From Bacteroidales bacterium (GTDB lineage Bacteria > Bacteroidota > Bacteroidia > Bacteroidales > WCHB1-69): 34,390 nt of DNA. Within the stretch, counting starts at the first letter, position 1, and every line of letters starts with the position of its first letter. The DNA lies in assembly GCA_012519525.1 (NCBI GenBank), contig JAAYQB010000006.1, positions 1 to 34,390 of the forward strand. The letters are read 5' to 3'. This document shows, in pieces, positions 4,544-23,368 of the stretch. The translations under genes were made by a program, and so were the position numbers. The notes under the pieces are model-generated. The model was given only the letters and a program-made list of their open reading frames with translations. It had not been told where the DNA came from and did not search any database.

Positions 4544-7500
4544 GTGAAAGTAATAAAGAAATCTTACTACATATTTTATATATTATTACATCTGGTAATA
4601 ATATATTCTTTTGTGCAAGTAGCCCATGCTAACAAACTTTTTTTTGATGCTTATATTTTTCCGAACGATACGGGAAAAAAAATAGTTCCACAACCTTCTA
4701 CTAATCCGTTTCAACAAACGCCTTCCAGTCCGTTTTACTTAAAAGACCCTAAAAACTTCTCAACAAAAATTGAGTATGACCCTAAAAACAACAATTACAA
4801 TTTCCAACAAAAAATAGGCAATACCAATTTTGGCAACCCCGGTAGCATGTCTCTCGACGAATACCTCCAATACGATATTCAAAAAGCGATGAGAGATTAT
4901 TGGCGTCAACGTTCCGGCATTGGCATCAACACCGAATCGCAGCAAGGTATTATTCCTCAAATACGTGTGCCGAGCGAAGCCTTTGAACATATATTCGGAA
5001 GCAGTTTAATTGACATTAAACCTTCAGGCTCTGTCGAATTAAAATTCGGTTTAATTCACACCCAAAACGACAACACTTCTTTAAACACGGACGCACGCCG
5101 ACAAACACGCTTCGATTTTGACCAAAACATTCAAGTCAATTTAAAAGCCAGCATAGGCGACAAGATACATTATAACATGAGTTATAGTACTGAAACCTCT
5201 TTTAATTTTGAAAATAAATACAAACTCGGTTATGAAGGAAAAGAAGATGAAATTATTAAATTAATAGAATTTGGCGATGTTAACCTTCCTTTAAACAGTA
5301 CGTTAATACAAGGCTCGCAAACTTTATTCGGTGTCAAAACCCAATTGCAATTTGGAAAAACAACACTCACTACCGTTATTTCACAACAAAAAGGCGACAA
5401 AACCAATATTGTAGTCGAAAACGGAGCCGAAATGACGGAATTTGAGTTTAAAGCCGATGATTATGAAGAAAACAGACACTTCTTCCTTGCTCAATACTTC
5501 TATGATACTTACGGAGAAGCCATGGCAACACTGCCATTAATTAACTCAAAAGTTACGATTACAAAAATCGAAGTATGGAGAACCAATATAGGTTCTGCAG
5601 TACAGGAAAACAGAAATATCGTAGCACTTGCCGACTTAGGAGAAATTAACCCTCATAATGCCAATGTAAAACGTAATGCAGCCTATCGCCACAACTATCC
5701 TGATAGCAATGCAAACGATTTATTGCAAAACATGGACTACAATAAATTGAGAAATATTAATACGGCAAGCACTTATTTGGAAAGCAAAGGAATGGTTGCC
5801 GGCTTGGATTATGAAAAAATAGAATCTGCCAGATTATTAAGTCCCAGCGAATATACTTTTAATAGCAAACTTGGATTTATCTCATTAACTTCCAAGCTAA
5901 ATGCCGACCAAGCATTAGCCGTAGCTTTTCAATACACTGTCATTGGCGACCCTAATATCTATCAGGTAGGACAATTTTCAAACGAAGTACAAACGCCGGG
6001 TTGTGTTATTGTAAAATTATTGAAAAGTACAGCCGTCAACACTAAAATTCCGATGTGGAAATTAATGATGAAAAACGTTTATTCACTCAACGCTTATCAA
6101 GTTTCAGGAGAAGAATTTCGTTTAAATATTCTTTATAAAGGAGAAGAAGGAGGAGTCGGATTAGGTTATTTCTCAGAAGTAAGCGAAGACTTAAAAGGCG
6201 TTTCACTCATACGTATTATGGGCTTAGACCGTCTGAACTATCAACAAGCGGCAATCCCCGACGGAGTTTTCGACTTTATTGACGGAGCTGCCACAGTTGG
6301 AGGAACCATTCAAGCCGAATACGGACGTATTTACTTCCCTACTGTCGAACCTTTTGGTAAAGATTTACGCGAAACATTGAAAAACAGTCCGGGAGCAGGC
6401 GATAAATATGCTTTCGATTCATTGTATACAACCACTAAAACCCTTGCTCAACAATATTCTGAAAAAAACAAATACTATTTGGAAGGACGCTATAAGTCCA
6501 CTTACGGCAACGAGATATCGCTCGGTGTTTGGAACATTGCTCAAGGCTCCGTTACCGTTACTGCCGGAGGTGTTACACTCACCGAAGGAGTCGATTATTC
6601 TGTCGACTACAATGCGGGAACCTTGCGTATATTGAACCAAAACTATTTAAGTTCAGGCACACCCATCAATATTTCCGTAGAAAGCACCAACGTCATGGGA
6701 ACCACAAAAACCATGTTCGGATTGCATGTCGACCATGCCTTAAACAAGGACATGGTAATAGGTGCTACCCTCTTAAATTTACGAGAAAGAACAGAAACTT
6801 TCAAAGTTAATTTTGGAGAAGAACCTATCAATAATACCATTTGGGGATTAAACTTTGCCATGCAAAAAGACGTTCGAGCAATTACAAAAGCTTTGAATTA
6901 TCTTCCTATCTATAAAACCAAGCAAGAATCAAGTATTCAATTCGATGGAGAATTTGCACACTTTATTCCGGGACATACTCGCAGCATAGGTAGAGGCAAT
7001 AAAGCACAACTGTATGTTGACGACTTTGAAGCAGCAAAAACAACCATTAATTTAACTACACCCGGTTTTTGGTTTTTAGCAAGCACACCTCAACACCAAA
7101 CTAAAAAAGGCATGTTTCCTGAAGCAGCATTGGGAAGTGGCTTACAATACGGTTTTAATAGAGCTAAAATAGCATGGTACATTATTGACCCTCTCTTTCA
7201 CAATAATAGCTCTTCAACACCTTCTAATATTACCGCAGACGACAAGTCGGAAATGTATTCACGACGTATTTTAATAAAAGAAGTTTTCCCTTATAAAAGC
7301 ATTGACGCTACAAGTCAAGACCCTTATTTATCCGTATTAAATTTGGCTTTTTATCCGAAAGAACGAGGTCCTTACAATTATGATGCCTTAGGTGTGGCGG
7401 GAATTTCTGCAGGATTAAATAGCGACGGAAGTTTAAAAAATCCGGAAACTCGTTGGGGAGGAATTATGAGAAAATTAGAATCTACTGATTTTGAAACATC

Positions 7501-18268: not shown

Positions 18269-19519
18269 TTACTCTAATTCGTGAATAACTAAACCTGAGC
18301 GTAACTTAGGTTCAAACCACGTTGTTTTTGGCGGCATAATATTGCCCGTATCAGCAATATTAATAAGTTGTTGCATAGAAACGGGATACAATGCAAAAGC
18401 TACTGCCATCTCACCACTATCAACACGACGTTTCAACTCGCCTAAACCTCGTATTCCGCCAACAAAATCAATACGATTCGATGTTCTTAAATCTTTAATA
18501 CCTAATATTTTATCTAAAACCAAATTCGATAAAATAGTAACATCTAACACACCAATAGGGTCGCTATCATCGTAAGTAGACGGCTTGGCTGTTAAACGAT
18601 ACCATTTTCCATCGATATACATACTAAATTCATGTAATTGAGCCGGTTTATAAATGTCTTTTCCCATTTCCTCTACTTTAAAAGTAGCTTTTAGTTTTTC
18701 GATAAACTCTTCTTTCGATAAACCGTTCAAATCTTTTACCACTCGATTATAATCTATGATTTTCAATTGATTATCAGGGAAAATAACCGTCATAAAGTAA
18801 TTATATTCTTCTTTTCCCGTGTGGTTTTTATTTTTCGCTTTTTGTTCTCCTCCTACCAATGCTGCCGCTGCCGTACGATGATGACCGTCGGCTACATATA
18901 AATAAGGAATTTCTTTATCAAAAATATCAACAATACGTTGTATGATTGCTTTGTCTTTTATCACCCATAGGGTATGTCCGAAACCTTCGTCGGCAATAAA
19001 ATCATATTCCGGCTCTTGCGTGGCAACGATATTCGACACTATCTCATCTATCTTTTTATTAGCCGGATAGGTGAAAAACACAGGTTCAACATTCGCATTG
19101 GTATTGCGAATATGTATCATGCGGTCTTCTTCTTTTGCTTTGAGTGTCAATTCGTGCTTTTTAATCTTTTCGCTAAGATAATCATCTCGATGAGAACAAG
19201 TTAATATTCCATACTGTGTTCTTCCATCCATAGTTTGGGCATAGATGTAGAGGTATTCATCTTCGTCTTGAATCAACCATTTATTATCTTTAAACTTTTT
19301 ATAATTTTCCGTTACTTTATCATAGACTTCTTGACTATGCTCATCGGTACCTACAGGAAGGTCTATTTCCGCTTTTGTAATATGTAACAAAGAATAAGGA
19401 TTATTAGCTGCTTCTGCACGTGCTTCTTCCGAATTCAATACGTCATAAGGACGGGATGCTAATTGCTTAACGATTTCTTTAGGTGGACGTAAGCCTTTAA
19501 ATGGTTTTATGATTGCCAT
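18269..19519 (-). CDS. DUF1015 family protein
   Basis: 416 aa; MAIIKPFKGLRPPKEIVKQLASRPYDVLNSEEARAEAANNPYSLLHITKAEIDLP ... YVADGHHRTAAA is characteristic. Confidence 0.9.
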   Translation of the reverse strand: MAIIKPFKGLRPPKEIVKQLASRPYDVLNSEEARAEAANNPYSLLHITKAEIDLPVGTDEHSQEVYDKVTENYKKFKDNKWLIQDEDEYLYIYAQTMDGRTQYGILTCSHRDDYLSEKIKKHELTLKAKEEDRMIHIRNTNANVEPVFFTYPANKKIDEIVSNIVATQEPEYDFIADEGFGHTLWVIKDKAIIQRIVDIFDKEIPYLYVADGHHRTAAAALVGGEQKAKNKNHTGKEEYNYFMTVIFPDNQLKIIDYNRVVKDLNGLSKEEFIEKLKATFKVEEMGKDIYKPAQLHEFSMYIDGKWYRLTAKPSTYDDSDPIGVLDVTILSNLVLDKILGIKDLRTSNRIDFVGGIRGLGELKRRVDSGEMAVAFALYPVSMQQLINIADTGNIMPPKTTWFEPKLRSGLVIHELE

Positions 19520-19662: not shown

Positions 19663-19687
19663 AACAAATAAATGTATATTTTTGCAA
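19663..19687 (+). repeat. 25-bp promoter-like repeat, copy 1
   Basis: AACAAATAAATGTATATTTTTGCAA, identical to copies at 20292 and 20942; contains the TAnnTTTG -7 box (TATTTTTG). Confidence 0.9.
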
Positions 19688-19738
19688 AAAACATGAAATT
19701 AACATGATTAACTAAACCACATTAAAATTCAAAATAAT

Positions 19739-20200
19739 ATGAAAAAATATCTTATAGCTTTTGTTTTAATTTCTACTTTTTATTCTTTTTGTTTTTCACA
19801 AGAGTTTGATCTAGAGGTAGAGTCTGATTATCGAGAATTTCGTTGTGGATGTAAAAAAGGGATTGATACATTTAATATAGTTATTTATGATACAAATATT
19901 CTAAACGAATATATAGGATTTGCTTTGATAGAATTCACTTTAAATAGTATTGCAGCAGATTCTATTGAACTAATTGATGTAAAAATTGTAGGAATTCAAT
20001 TACAAGATATCAATACAAAAGAAATAATTATGACTCTGAAAGACAATAAAGATAGTCTATTTAAGTTGTATGAAAACAAACTTCTTTTAATTTTGAAAGG
20101 ATATAAATGTTGGTTCATTAAAAATGATATTGATAAAACATTTTGTCATAGAGTTTTAGCTTTTTATCCATTAAATGTTAGCAATTCCCCACATAAATAA
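19739..20200 (+). CDS. Small secreted protein of unknown function
   Basis: 153 aa; signal peptide MKKYLIAFVLISTFYSFCFSQ; no recognised domain; preceded by promoter-like repeat copy 1. Confidence 0.7.
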   Translation: MKKYLIAFVLISTFYSFCFSQEFDLEVESDYREFRCGCKKGIDTFNIVIYDTNILNEYIGFALIEFTLNSIAADSIELIDVKIVGIQLQDINTKEIIMTLKDNKDSLFKLYENKLLLILKGYKCWFIKNDIDKTFCHRVLAFYPLNVSNSPHK

Positions 20201-20291
20201 TGTTCCATTTGATACTTTTTTGTTGTTGTTTTTAGAAAACAGAAAGAAAAAAAAACTTCGGTCAAAATACTTTTATTTTTTTATCTACTGA

Positions 20292-20316
20292 AACAAATAA
20301 ATGTATATTTTTGCAA
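20292..20316 (+). repeat. 25-bp promoter-like repeat, copy 2
   Basis: AACAAATAAATGTATATTTTTGCAA, identical to copies 1 and 3. Confidence 0.9.
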
Positions 20317-20405
20317 CATTAAAAAATAAAAATATTAACAAATAAAAAAAACTGTCCTACTATAGGGGGACACTTTACAATTATTGCAACAACAAAATAA
20401 CACAA

Positions 20406-20981
20406 ATGAAAAGAAGTCAAATTAACTATTTTGTTTTTTATATCCTATTTTTATTAATAGGAATGCCGTATGGTTGTAAATTTAAAAATATTGGGAAGAT
20501 GAATTCAAATAAAAATTCTCTTTGTTATTATTTTGGAGATGAATACGTAATTTCAGGAACACTTTTAGTGCGAGATTTATATGGAGCACCAAATTATGGA
20601 GAGACACCTGACGTTGATAAACTTGAAAAATTTTATTTTATAATCATAGATACAGCTATAAATATATTTGTCAAGGATACTATTAATTCTTACAATTTAA
20701 AAAATAAATATTCTCAATCATGTTTTCAAATTTTAGGATATGATTCAATTATCAATGGTAAATTTTGTAGTTATTATTCACTTTATTTAATGAAATTACA
20801 ATCTGGATCAAAAATTTGTCTAAAAGGGTATTTTGATAGTGCAATAACTGGACATCATCATACGGATGTATTATTTATTGTAGAAAAAAATCCCCCGATA
20901 GATAACCCCTCTTCAGTTGCAAATAAAAAAAGAAGAAAGAAAACAAATAAATGTATATTTTTGCAAAACGAAATAATATAA
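20406..20981 (+). CDS. DUF4431-like lipoprotein or secreted protein with atypical C-terminal tail
   Basis: 191 aa; hydrophobic N-terminus ending in GC; SGTLLVRDLYGAPNYGETPDVDK ... KGYFDSAITGHHHTDVLFIVEK resembles DUF4431; the last residues (TNKCIFLQNEII) are encoded by promoter-like repeat copy 3. Confidence 0.65.
   Translation: MKRSQINYFVFYILFLLIGMPYGCKFKNIGKMNSNKNSLCYYFGDEYVISGTLLVRDLYGAPNYGETPDVDKLEKFYFIIIDTAINIFVKDTINSYNLKNKYSQSCFQILGYDSIINGKFCSYYSLYLMKLQSGSKICLKGYFDSAITGHHHTDVLFIVEKNPPIDNPSSVANKKRRKKTNKCIFLQNEII
20942..20966 (+). repeat. 25-bp promoter-like repeat, copy 3 (inside the 3' end of the preceding ORF)
   Basis: AACAAATAAATGTATATTTTTGCAA, identical to copies 1 and 2; no substantial + strand ORF follows. 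Confidence 0.9.
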
Positions 20982-21066
20982 AAAAAATGCACTTAACCTA
21001 TAACGCAATAAAATCGCAATAAGCTGTAAAACAAAGGAAAGCTGAAAGAAGTTACTTCCTTACGTC

Positions 21067-21255
21067 CATTCGTAATTTTTAATTGTCAATTCGTAATTTG
21101 TAATTCTAAATTCTACCTTTTTAACCGCAAAGAACGCAAAGAATTCCGTTTGAAATTTTTCCACTAACTATTAATGCTAATGTATAACATGTGTCAACTT
21201 TTTTCAGGACGCGACACTAAATTCTAATTTCTAAATTCTAATTTCTAATTTTTTT
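21067..21255. repeat. Composite intergenic simple/interspersed repeat block
   Basis: ATTCGTAATTTTTAATTGTCAATTCGTAATTTGTAATTC; ACCGCAAAGAACGCAAAGAA; GTGTCAACTTTTTTCAGGACGCGACAC; (TAAATTCTAATTTC)n. Confidence 0.7.
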
Positions 21256-21271
21256 AGGACATATCAAACAA

Positions 21272-23368
21272 CTATATTTTCACTATCATTTGTAAGTGTA
21301 TATCCGATTTATTATTTCCATTAATGGCATCTAAAGCGGTTCCTATCGTATGTTTGTTTTTATAAAAACTTTGAGCTACTCTCAGCCATAGGTCTATATA
21401 AGAAGTGATTTCTACTTTCATCATCGCATAAAGTCGGCTTCCTATGCCGTAATAAGCAGGAATAGAGGAAGTATACAGCACATCGTTTTCGTAAGCATAC
21501 AAACGCGTATCGTAAGAATCGGTATGAAACAAAGCGTAGCGTCCTGTCAATGTTAGCCATTTGTATTGCCAAGCAATATCTTGATAGATTAAATAACCCT
21601 TCGATTTTTCCTTGTTTTTTTCCGTCTTACACACCACATATTCTAAGCAGCTTTTTAATTGTAAATTGGAAAGAGGTTTATAGATAGCATTGAAACGATA
21701 ATTTTGTTTTTTTACCGCTGTCAATTGATTGTAATATTCCATGGATTCATTGGTGTTTTTATCGGAATGTTTGAACTGAAAATAGCAAGAAAATTTTCTG
21801 TTTACATTACATATCAGCCTTGCCAACACTTTATAAGAACTTGAGGGTGCGTCGCTTGTGTATTTCAGCCACATAAAACGATAATAGTCTATATTGGCAT
21901 TAAGGATTAAGTATTTATTTAAAAACACCTGCGTTCCTATTACTAATCCGTTTTCATTGCCGATATTGGTTGCCTGCCGATAGGCATTGCCTTGTATAGC
22001 CTGATAATCTTTACTGTAATAGCGATGTAAAAGCGTAAAATTCAGTAAAGGGTCTGCATAATAAATCAATCCGTTTAAAAGAGCAAAACCCCCGTAATGT
22101 GTTACTGCATTTTCGCCAAAAACACTTACTTTTTTAATGATTGCATTATAGCTAACACTTGCATTCAACACATCTTGTTGATTGATTTTATAGAAGTTAT
22201 AAGGTTTCGGCTCTACATAAAACGGACGATTGTAATGCGAATAAAACACCCCCGCTCCTACTCTTACCACACGATGGGTGTAATGAGCAAACATTCCCGC
22301 TACTTGTTGGTCAACATTGTTTTTTCTTTCTATTTCCGTCGTAGTGCGATGATAGCCTGTTTCTTGTAAAGAATAAATAAACTCTTGCTCGCTGTTTTCC
22401 ACTTTATTCACATTCGCATCTTTTTGACGATAGGAATAAAATAACGCCAAGCGAAACTTTCTAAATTGCAGTTCCGTAGCAGCACCACGCAAAAAATTAT
22501 TTTCATTGGAAGAAGTATAAGGTGCAACAGCTTTTGCATAACGATAAATTTCCATAGGATTAATGATAGTCGGCGGTTGAAAACCTGTCCACATTGCCAA
22601 TCCTTGTCCAAAACGAATTTGATAATCACCTACAGCTAACGATTTTATACATTTAATGTCTTTCATAAAAAAATGAAAAGAATAAAAATCGAAACCGTAT
22701 CTGTTACTTCCTTTAAAAAACTCTTCTCCCGCATCTTTTTCGGCAGTAAAGCCAAAACGCACTTTAGATGCATAATCAAATTTATACTTAAACAATAAGT
22801 AAGGCTGACTTCCTCTATAAACGGCATTGGGTTTTAATTCCAATAAAGAATCGGATAAGGTAGTGTAACCGACTTGCTTATTCAATACTTGACGGTAACG
22901 CATTAAACAAGTGTTTTTTCCATATTTAAAGACCTTTTTAAAGGTCATTTTTCGACTTTGGTCAACGGGTAACAATACGATATAAGGCAAGAGCATACGA
23001 ACCGTTTCCATCGTAAAACCCTCAACAGCTGCCAATTCGTATAAACTAACCATAGCTCCGTTGACATCTAAATACATTTTAAGATGGTATATTTGATAAT
23101 CCGTTAACTTAAATACCGCCATTAAAACATCGTAATCAGGCTGGTTGATATTGATTTTATTTTCACGATAATAAGCGTATTCTTCTATTATTTCACTATA
23201 ATCTTGCTCTTCTTCCGCTTCTTCGGCTAAATTTTCGAGTTGCAACATAAAATCATCTTCTTGTATCAACTCCTTCTCTTTAAAAACAATCGTATCAATT
23301 TGAGCTAACAAAAAAATACTTTTTTGACAAAGCAAAAACAAACAAGCTATCAATAAGTATTTACGCAT
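21272..23368 (-). CDS. Helix-hairpin-helix domain protein with predicted C-terminal outer-membrane beta-barrel
   Basis: 698 aa; signal peptide; N-terminal ININQPDYDVLMAVFKLTDYQIYHLKMYLDVNGAMVSLYELAAVEGFTMETVRMLLPYI (HhH/ComEA-like); remainder rich in alternating aromatic beta strands ending in KI. Confidence 0.75.
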   Translation of the reverse strand: MRKYLLIACLFLLCQKSIFLLAQIDTIVFKEKELIQEDDFMLQLENLAEEAEEEQDYSEIIEEYAYYRENKININQPDYDVLMAVFKLTDYQIYHLKMYLDVNGAMVSLYELAAVEGFTMETVRMLLPYIVLLPVDQSRKMTFKKVFKYGKNTCLMRYRQVLNKQVGYTTLSDSLLELKPNAVYRGSQPYLLFKYKFDYASKVRFGFTAEKDAGEEFFKGSNRYGFDFYSFHFFMKDIKCIKSLAVGDYQIRFGQGLAMWTGFQPPTIINPMEIYRYAKAVAPYTSSNENNFLRGAATELQFRKFRLALFYSYRQKDANVNKVENSEQEFIYSLQETGYHRTTTEIERKNNVDQQVAGMFAHYTHRVVRVGAGVFYSHYNRPFYVEPKPYNFYKINQQDVLNASVSYNAIIKKVSVFGENAVTHYGGFALLNGLIYYADPLLNFTLLHRYYSKDYQAIQGNAYRQATNIGNENGLVIGTQVFLNKYLILNANIDYYRFMWLKYTSDAPSSSYKVLARLICNVNRKFSCYFQFKHSDKNTNESMEYYNQLTAVKKQNYRFNAIYKPLSNLQLKSCLEYVVCKTEKNKEKSKGYLIYQDIAWQYKWLTLTGRYALFHTDSYDTRLYAYENDVLYTSSIPAYYGIGSRLYAMMKVEITSYIDLWLRVAQSFYKNKHTIGTALDAINGNNKSDIHLQMIVKI

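What the first reader, a model, noticed from the sequence alone, without database searches (positions are those of the whole stretch)
19663..20966. A 25-bp promoter-like sequence repeated identically three times in a small accessory island
AACAAATAAATGTATATTTTTGCAA occurs at 19663, 20292 and 20942, about 630-650 bp apart, always on the + strand, with no noticeable similarity in the flanks. It includes the Bacteroidota -7 box (TATTTTTG) and spans the region up to about -32, with no obvious separate -33 TTTG. Copies 1 and 2 each precede one small secreted/lipoprotein gene, giving a promoter-gene-promoter-gene-promoter layout. This resembles a cassette array or a mobile promoter-type mini-repeat and could be a recombination target for swapping small secreted-protein genes.
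Basis: partly seen in the sequence, partly recalled or inferred. Interest (0 to 1): 0.75.

Follow-up and report, generated by a model that had tools for sequence, protein, structure and literature searches.

The report
Shared promoter of orphan toxin-immunity cassettes
The thrice-repeated 25-letter sequence is one of about 50 copies, in this uncultured Bacteroidales genome, of a lineage-specific promoter that drives short bacterial-warfare modules (a small Rhs toxin plus an immunity gene), and the two small secreted-protein genes here are probably leftover immunity genes whose toxins have been lost, with a dead toxin start behind the third copy.

Summary
The three exact 25-mers are real and not chance, but they are not a local curiosity. 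The genome carries about 50 copies of one element (consensus AACAAATAAAAGTATA[C/T]TTTTGCAA), absent from 54 genomes outside the genus. Copies usually head a single small secreted or lipoprotein gene (34 of 39 with an N-terminal signal). Left and right flanks fall into a few recurring modules that combine freely around the core, so the core is a mosaic junction. In sister species, and at three G000 contig ends, the core stands before short orphan Rhs-core/toxin genes followed by a small secreted immunity-position gene. Several G000 genes behind the core are homologs of those immunity genes without the toxin; one is 97.5% identical with no synonymous change, its toxin cut away to just before the immunity start codon. 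Copy 3 precedes a mini-Rhs start killed by a stop at codon 12; copy 2 an IS3-like right end. Best reading: promoters of mini-Rhs toxin/immunity modules, here reduced to two probable orphan immunity genes. Tyrosine recombinases are only XerC/XerD-like, so shuffling is more likely homologous or illegitimate than site-specific. Closest known: orphan Rhs/CDI modules, immunity arrays, rAID.

The parts
19663..19687 (+). Repeat copy 1, promoter core with -7 box TATTTTTG; heads ORF1
19688..19738 (+). Leader of ORF1 (ATGAAATTAA..TAACTAAACCACATT type), resembling leaders behind other core copies (C149:703, C132:12379; by eye)
19739..20200 (+). ORF1, 153 aa, signal-peptide-like N terminus; probable orphan immunity gene (inferred); no Pfam family; no convincing homolog in 99 other genomes of the family
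20271..20291 (+). Left module of copy 2 (TTTATTTTTTTATCTACTGA type, resembling C26:1075 and C37:12662)
20292..20316 (+). Repeat copy 2, promoter core; heads ORF2
20317..20375 (+). Right module 'Dhp': leader ending in ACTGTCCTACTATAGGGGGACACTT (hairpin 20352-20375); matches the right end of an IS3-family element seen intact in a relative of another genus
20406..20981 (+). ORF2, 191 aa frame; first ~170 aa 72% identical to a gene in another genus (dN 0.15, dS 0.92); secreted/lipoprotein-like N terminus; probable orphan immunity gene (inferred). Homology spans 20372-20895 only; the last ~25 codons read through copy 3
20910..20941 (+). Left flank of copy 3 resembling left module 'UC' (TTCAGTTG..AAAAAAAG..AAAGAA)
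   Evidence: by eye; below the clustering threshold
20942..20966 (+). Repeat copy 3, promoter core; no intact gene downstream
20967..21034 (+). Right module 'DL': 5' leader and start of a mini-Rhs gene, ATG at 20987, reads MHLTYNAIKSQ* (stop 21020-21022) then AVKQ; intact G000 copies read MHLTYNEINSQYAVKQSLPLGGDLEG

Best explanation
The 25-mer is the core of a genus-specific promoter (Bacteroidota -7 box TAnnTTTG) that heads short, stand-alone Rhs-core/toxin genes and their downstream secreted immunity genes. In this genome the modules have been duplicated, moved and trimmed many times, so the promoter now often drives an immunity gene without its toxin. The window island is a reduced array: two probable orphan immunity genes (ORF1, ORF2), each with its own copy, and a third copy in front of a dead mini-Rhs start. 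Shown: genome-wide family, genus restriction, association with small secreted genes, modular flanks around the core, mini-Rhs start behind the core in sisters and at three G000 contig ends, toxin-less homologs of immunity-position genes in G000, one clean toxin-deletion junction. Inferred: promoter activity, that ORF1/ORF2 are immunity proteins, and that rearrangement is by homologous or microhomology recombination, helped by an IS3-like right end whose outward promoter shares the GTATATTTTTGCAA stretch.
For: Genome-wide: 54 hits up to 3 mismatches, reversed control 0; up to 2 mismatches only in the genus, G000 50, G005 9, G002 7, G004 1, 0 in 54 genomes of other genera. 40 of 50 cores have a co-oriented ORF within 320 bp, median 63 bp; 34/39 of these have an N-terminal hydrophobic signal against 104/268 other ORFs in the same stretches (Fisher 7e-9). 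Flank modules: UA x Dhp, UA x DL, UB x Dhp, UB x DL all occur. Mini-Rhs: TIGR03696 in all six genus genomes, 25 in G005, 13 in G002, 4 in G000; arrays of mini-Rhs plus small secreted gene in L231, L233-L236; core directly before MNQTYKA starts in L182, L184, L185 and before intact MHLTYN starts at G000 contig ends C114, C77, C58. Orphan immunity: L031:217-819 is 97.5% identical to the gene 2 bp behind a mini-Rhs in G005, 0 synonymous differences in 108 sites while DUF1015 has dS 1.93; junction resolved. Further homologs of immunity-position genes: C7 58%, C53 58%, C93 35%, C151 61%.
Against: ORF1 has no convincing homolog and ORF2's homolog (G006) is not next to an Rhs gene in the stretch seen, so their immunity role is by position and type only. 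Only 6 of 40 first genes have any homolog in the sister stretches fetched, 3 of them in immunity position (Fisher p 0.027). A few cores head housekeeping-type genes (rubrerythrin-like at C9, HydF-like GTPase at C158, nucleotidyltransferase at C34; names by eye). No VipB (T6SS) in the genus, so the delivery route is unknown. G000 is a fragmented MAG that breaks at these repeats (17 of 50 cores within 500 bp of a contig end), so Rhs counts are lower bounds. No RNA data.
Confidence: 0.68

Rival explanations
1. The 25-mer is only the ordinary housekeeping promoter of this lineage; the identity reflects strong promoter constraint and the gene association is incidental.
For: Contains the general -7 box TAnnTTTG (PMC7366714); some cores precede housekeeping-type genes.
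Against: 54 genomes of the same family and order, presumably with the same sigma consensus, have none at up to 2 mismatches; flanks up to 60 bp each side are shared in families, beyond any promoter; strong bias to small secreted genes.
Confidence: 0.1
2. The 25-mer is a site-specific recombination site (integron- or rAID-like): cassettes of gene plus flank are excised and inserted at it by a recombinase.
For: Single-gene spacing in several arrays, free combination of left and right modules around the core, same-locus indel starting exactly at the core in G002 versus G005, palindromic centre AAAAGTATACTTTT in the C-variant.
Against: Only XerC- and XerD-like tyrosine recombinases in G000; none near the island; the resolved junction is a microhomology outside the core; many modules start or end at other dispersed repeats. 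Serine and other recombinases were not searched.
Confidence: 0.1
3. Mobile promoter: the core plus flanks is a MITE-like or solo-end derivative of an IS3-family element inserted upstream of genes.
For: Right module Dhp equals the right end of an IS3-type element intact in G022 (rve E 2.5e-25), and such ends occur before unrelated genes at C4, C38, C45, C55, C104, C141.
Against: About half of the core copies lack Dhp; copies 1 and 3 in the window have other right sides; no matching left end found beside the cores; the core is also found with the mini-Rhs start in sister genomes that have no Dhp.
Confidence: 0.12

Closest known systems
Orphan rhs-CT/rhsI and cdiA-CT/cdiI modules (PMC3150448)
   Same: Detached toxin C-termini carrying the end of the Rhs core, each followed by a small immunity gene, in tandem; modules exchanged between strains; immunity genes kept.
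   Different: Here many mini-Rhs genes have their own conserved promoter, leader and start codon, are scattered over the genome, and the promoter itself is a junction between flank modules; in the published cases most orphan CTs lack translation starts and the tested one is co-transcribed with the main gene.
Immunity gene arrays after effector displacement (Vibrio cholerae T6SS, PMC5361080)
   Same: Toxins lost, immunity genes retained in arrays and highly similar to effector-linked ones elsewhere.
   Different: No T6SS VipB in this genus; genes are separately promoted, not strings behind one effector.
rAID, recombinase-associated acquired interbacterial defence of Bacteroidales (described in PMC12247911)
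   Same: Co-oriented short genes of about 100-300 codons, orphan immunity, conserved intergenic motifs, Bacteroidales.
   Different: No adjacent tyrosine recombinase; many small scattered arrays; the intergenic motif is a promoter shared with mini-Rhs genes.
IS3-family elements
   Same: Right module Dhp matches the right end of an intact IS3-type element in a relative.
   Different: In G000 only ends without an assembled transposase were found.

Membership tests
Orphan Rhs toxin/immunity modules | Rhs-associated core directly before a variable C-terminal domain | tested here: met
   For the element family: TIGR03696 over cut-off in all six genus genomes, two intact genes in G000 L231. In the window itself only a dead start remains.
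Orphan Rhs toxin/immunity modules | Small gene immediately downstream of the toxin | tested here: met
   For the family: L231, L233-L236.
Orphan Rhs toxin/immunity modules | Window ORF1/ORF2 neutralise a cognate toxin | not testable with these tools
   No cognate toxin identified; the ORF2 homolog in G006 has no Rhs neighbour in view.
rAID | Adjacent predicted tyrosine recombinase | tested here: not met
   Only two Phage_integrase proteins in G000, XerC/XerD-like, on C104 and C61.
[quoted passage not shown]
   Window and contigs C57, C93, C149, C160.
Integron gene cassettes | Integron integrase | tested here: not met
   No tyrosine recombinase beyond the XerC/XerD-like ones; attC structure not tested.
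IS3 family (module Dhp only) | OrfA/OrfB with rve core and terminal inverted repeats | tested here: inconclusive
   Intact element in G022 L243 with an imperfect end match; no OrfB found in G000.
Bacteroidota primary-sigma promoter | -7 TAnnTTTG and -33 TTTG | tested here: inconclusive
   -7 present in the core; -33 not evident; no transcription data.

The most novel reading that the evidence does not exclude
The 25-mer is a true exchange point: a lineage-specific system in which promoter-bounded immunity and toxin cassettes are shuffled at a 25-bp promoter by an unidentified recombinase, giving an integron-like library of immunity genes that are each expressed on arrival.
Probability: 0.1. 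Interest if true: 0.78.

Novelty: new variant of a known kind. Interest (0 to 1): 0.52.

Why it matters
It gives a concrete picture of how a Bacteroidales lineage may turn a toxin arsenal into a library of separately expressed orphan immunity genes: the toxin is cut away and a common promoter is left in front of the immunity gene. The repeated promoter is also a search handle for immunity genes that no family model recognises, and it makes the question of how orphan immunity genes stay expressed after losing their toxins directly testable.

Tried and rejected
Rfam: no RNA family for the leader or hairpin; hairpin folding only modestly better than shuffles (z from -0.3 to -2.0), so no riboregulator is claimed. 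AlphaFold models of ORF1 and ORF2 without alignment were unusable (mean pLDDT 35-37), so no fold search was run. Pfam of 50 core-headed or neighbouring proteins: nearly all unknown. IS3 OrfB not found in G000; absence may be assembly collapse. The viral-contig scan gave no answer. An early idea that the hairpin is an attC site or a regulatory RNA was dropped once the IS3-type element in G022 was seen. Comparison of the DUF1015-HhH interval: none of 85 DUF1015 loci from relatives has the HhH gene, ORF1 or ORF2 in the stretch held, so no empty site for this island could be defined.

Full report
Observation. The 25-mer is present exactly at the three stated places, on the + strand, with none expected by chance. 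The layout copy-ORF1-copy-ORF2-copy between a DUF1015 gene (18269-19519, -) and a long gene (21272-23368, -; weak T2SSK/helix-hairpin-helix-type match) is as described. Copies 1 and 2 share upstream sequence as well.

Genome-wide family. In the window's own genome (G000, 1.96 Mb, 169 contigs; the window is contig C156) there are 54 matches with up to 3 mismatches and none for the reversed control. The consensus is AACAAATAAAAGTATA[C/T]TTTTGCAA; the window form with T at position 11 and T at 17 is exact only in the window. Of 60 genomes searched at up to 2 mismatches, only same-genus genomes have it (G000, G002, G004, G005; none in G001 and G003, both about 70% complete, nor in 54 genomes of other genera). 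It is therefore a lineage-specific repeat, not the general promoter of the order.

What it heads. Of 50 cores with up to 3 mismatches, 40 have a co-oriented ORF within 320 bp (median 63 bp). These ORFs are short (median 181 aa) and 34 of 39 have a hydrophobic N-terminal signal by a simple rule, against 104 of 268 other ORFs in the same stretches (Fisher 7e-9). Pfam recognises almost none. Cores occur in series on several contigs, and 17 of 50 lie within 500 bp of a contig end (expected at most 8.6%), so the assembly breaks at this repeated material.

Modular flanks. Clustering the 60 bp on each side gives a few left modules (UA, 21 copies including a subgroup; UB, 9; others) and right modules (Dhp, a leader that in full copies ends in ACTGTCCTAATAGAGGGGGACACTTAA; DL; and smaller ones). 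UA x Dhp, UA x DL, UB x Dhp and UB x DL all occur, so left and right sides have recombined around the core. Left modules lie at the ends of upstream genes or run into dispersed intergenic repeats.

Mini-Rhs genes. In sister genomes the core stands in front of short genes starting MNQ[TS]YKA.. and containing ..KYPSISPYTYCANNPVMFVDPTG.., the RHS-associated core, followed by a variable C-terminus and a small secreted or lipoprotein gene, often in tandem arrays. TIGR03696 hits at E up to 0.001: G005 25, G002 13, G003 5, G000 4, G004 2, G001 1. In G000 contig C16 two intact mini-Rhs genes start MHLTYNEINSQYAVKQSLPLGGDLEGF.. or nearly so. Module DL is exactly this start; contigs C114, C77 and C58 end inside such a start right behind a core. 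Copy 3 in the window is followed by the same start, broken by a stop at codon 12 (MHLTYNAIKSQ*AVKQ; 20987-21022) and then by unrelated sequence. Other G000 stubs: C149:2992 joins a secreted-protein gene after a few codons; C53 and C169 diverge early.

Orphan immunity genes. blastp against the sister loci pairs several G000 core-headed or second genes with immunity-position genes: C29 97.5%, C7 58%, C53 58%, C151 61%, C93 35%. For C29 the DNA junction is clear: G005 has toxin..AAAATTTTAACA-ATGAGAAATTTG, G000 has core-TGTTAAAAAATAAAAATATTAACA-ATGAGAAATTTG; the toxin is gone to just before the immunity start, at a short shared TTAACAATG. That pair has 0 synonymous differences in 108 sites, and C53, C60, C34 have dS 0.55-0.74, while DUF1015 between the same species has dS 1.93, which points to horizontal exchange after the species split. 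There is one control gene only, so this is suggestive.

The window's own genes. ORF2 is 72% identical over 167 codons to a gene in G006, another genus, with dN 0.15 and dS 0.92, so it is under constraint; the homologous block starts at 20372, the end of module Dhp, and ends at 20895, before copy 3. G006 has a different upstream sequence. No same-genus genome has ORF2. ORF1 has no convincing homolog. Their role as immunity genes is inferred from position, size, signal and the behaviour of the family.

Module Dhp. The same end occurs in other genera before unrelated genes; in G022 it is the right end of an element with OrfA and OrfB of IS3 type (rve, E 2.5e-25). In G000 several contigs start just downstream of a similar reading frame (..TPEELFKKIV* at C4) with a core-like outward promoter and Dhp. 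I propose, without proof, that deletions between the mini-Rhs promoter and this outward promoter, which share GTATATTTTTGCAA, made the frequent core-Dhp-immunity arrangement.

Same locus in two species. G005 C60 and G002 C123 match at 94.9% up to the end of the 25-mer, then differ by about 0.29 kb containing degenerate promoter/start copies, then match at 98.8% through toxin and immunity gene, and G002 has two further toxin/immunity pairs. Gain and loss thus happen at the promoter and in the conserved mini-Rhs start.

Mechanism of shuffling. G000 has only two tyrosine recombinases, both XerC/XerD-like. With the microhomology junction above, homologous and illegitimate recombination in repeat-rich DNA is the simpler reading; serine recombinases were not searched. 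No VipB was found in the genus, so how the toxins are delivered is open.

Comparison with known systems. Orphan rhs-CT/rhsI modules (PMC3150448), effector displacement leaving immunity arrays (PMC5361080) and rAID (PMC12247911) are the nearest. rAID membership fails on the recombinase. The new features are the conserved separate promoter of many modules, its spread over the genome, and its place as a junction of exchange.

Noticed in passing
G000 cores with C at position 17 (for example L013:916-940): The C-variant core contains a 14-bp perfect palindrome AAAAGTATACTTTT over the -7 region, which could be an operator for a common regulator.
   Followed up: no
window 21040-21260; many G000 loci: Intergenic DNA is a patchwork of dispersed short repeats (AACCGCAAAGAACGCAAAGA.., CTCCCCATTTGGGGAG.., TAATTTCTAAATTCTAATTTC..), typical flanks of these islands.
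   Followed up: partly
L069 (G000 C130) 6113-7423: An IS3-like right end precedes a VbhA-type antitoxin plus Fic gene, and a second copy of the left flank and core precedes a DUF1016-like gene.
   Followed up: partly
L243 (G022 C33): Intact IS3-type element with a -7-like outward promoter near its right end; related ends in G009, G022, G035.
   Followed up: partly
L071 / G005: Locus L071 (Bacteroidales bacterium isolate STF1_159) is identical over 9417 bp to G005, which names that sister genome.
   Followed up: yes
G000 C29 gene, L031:217-819: 97.5% aa identity to G005 with five nonsynonymous and no synonymous differences: recent transfer.
   Followed up: yes
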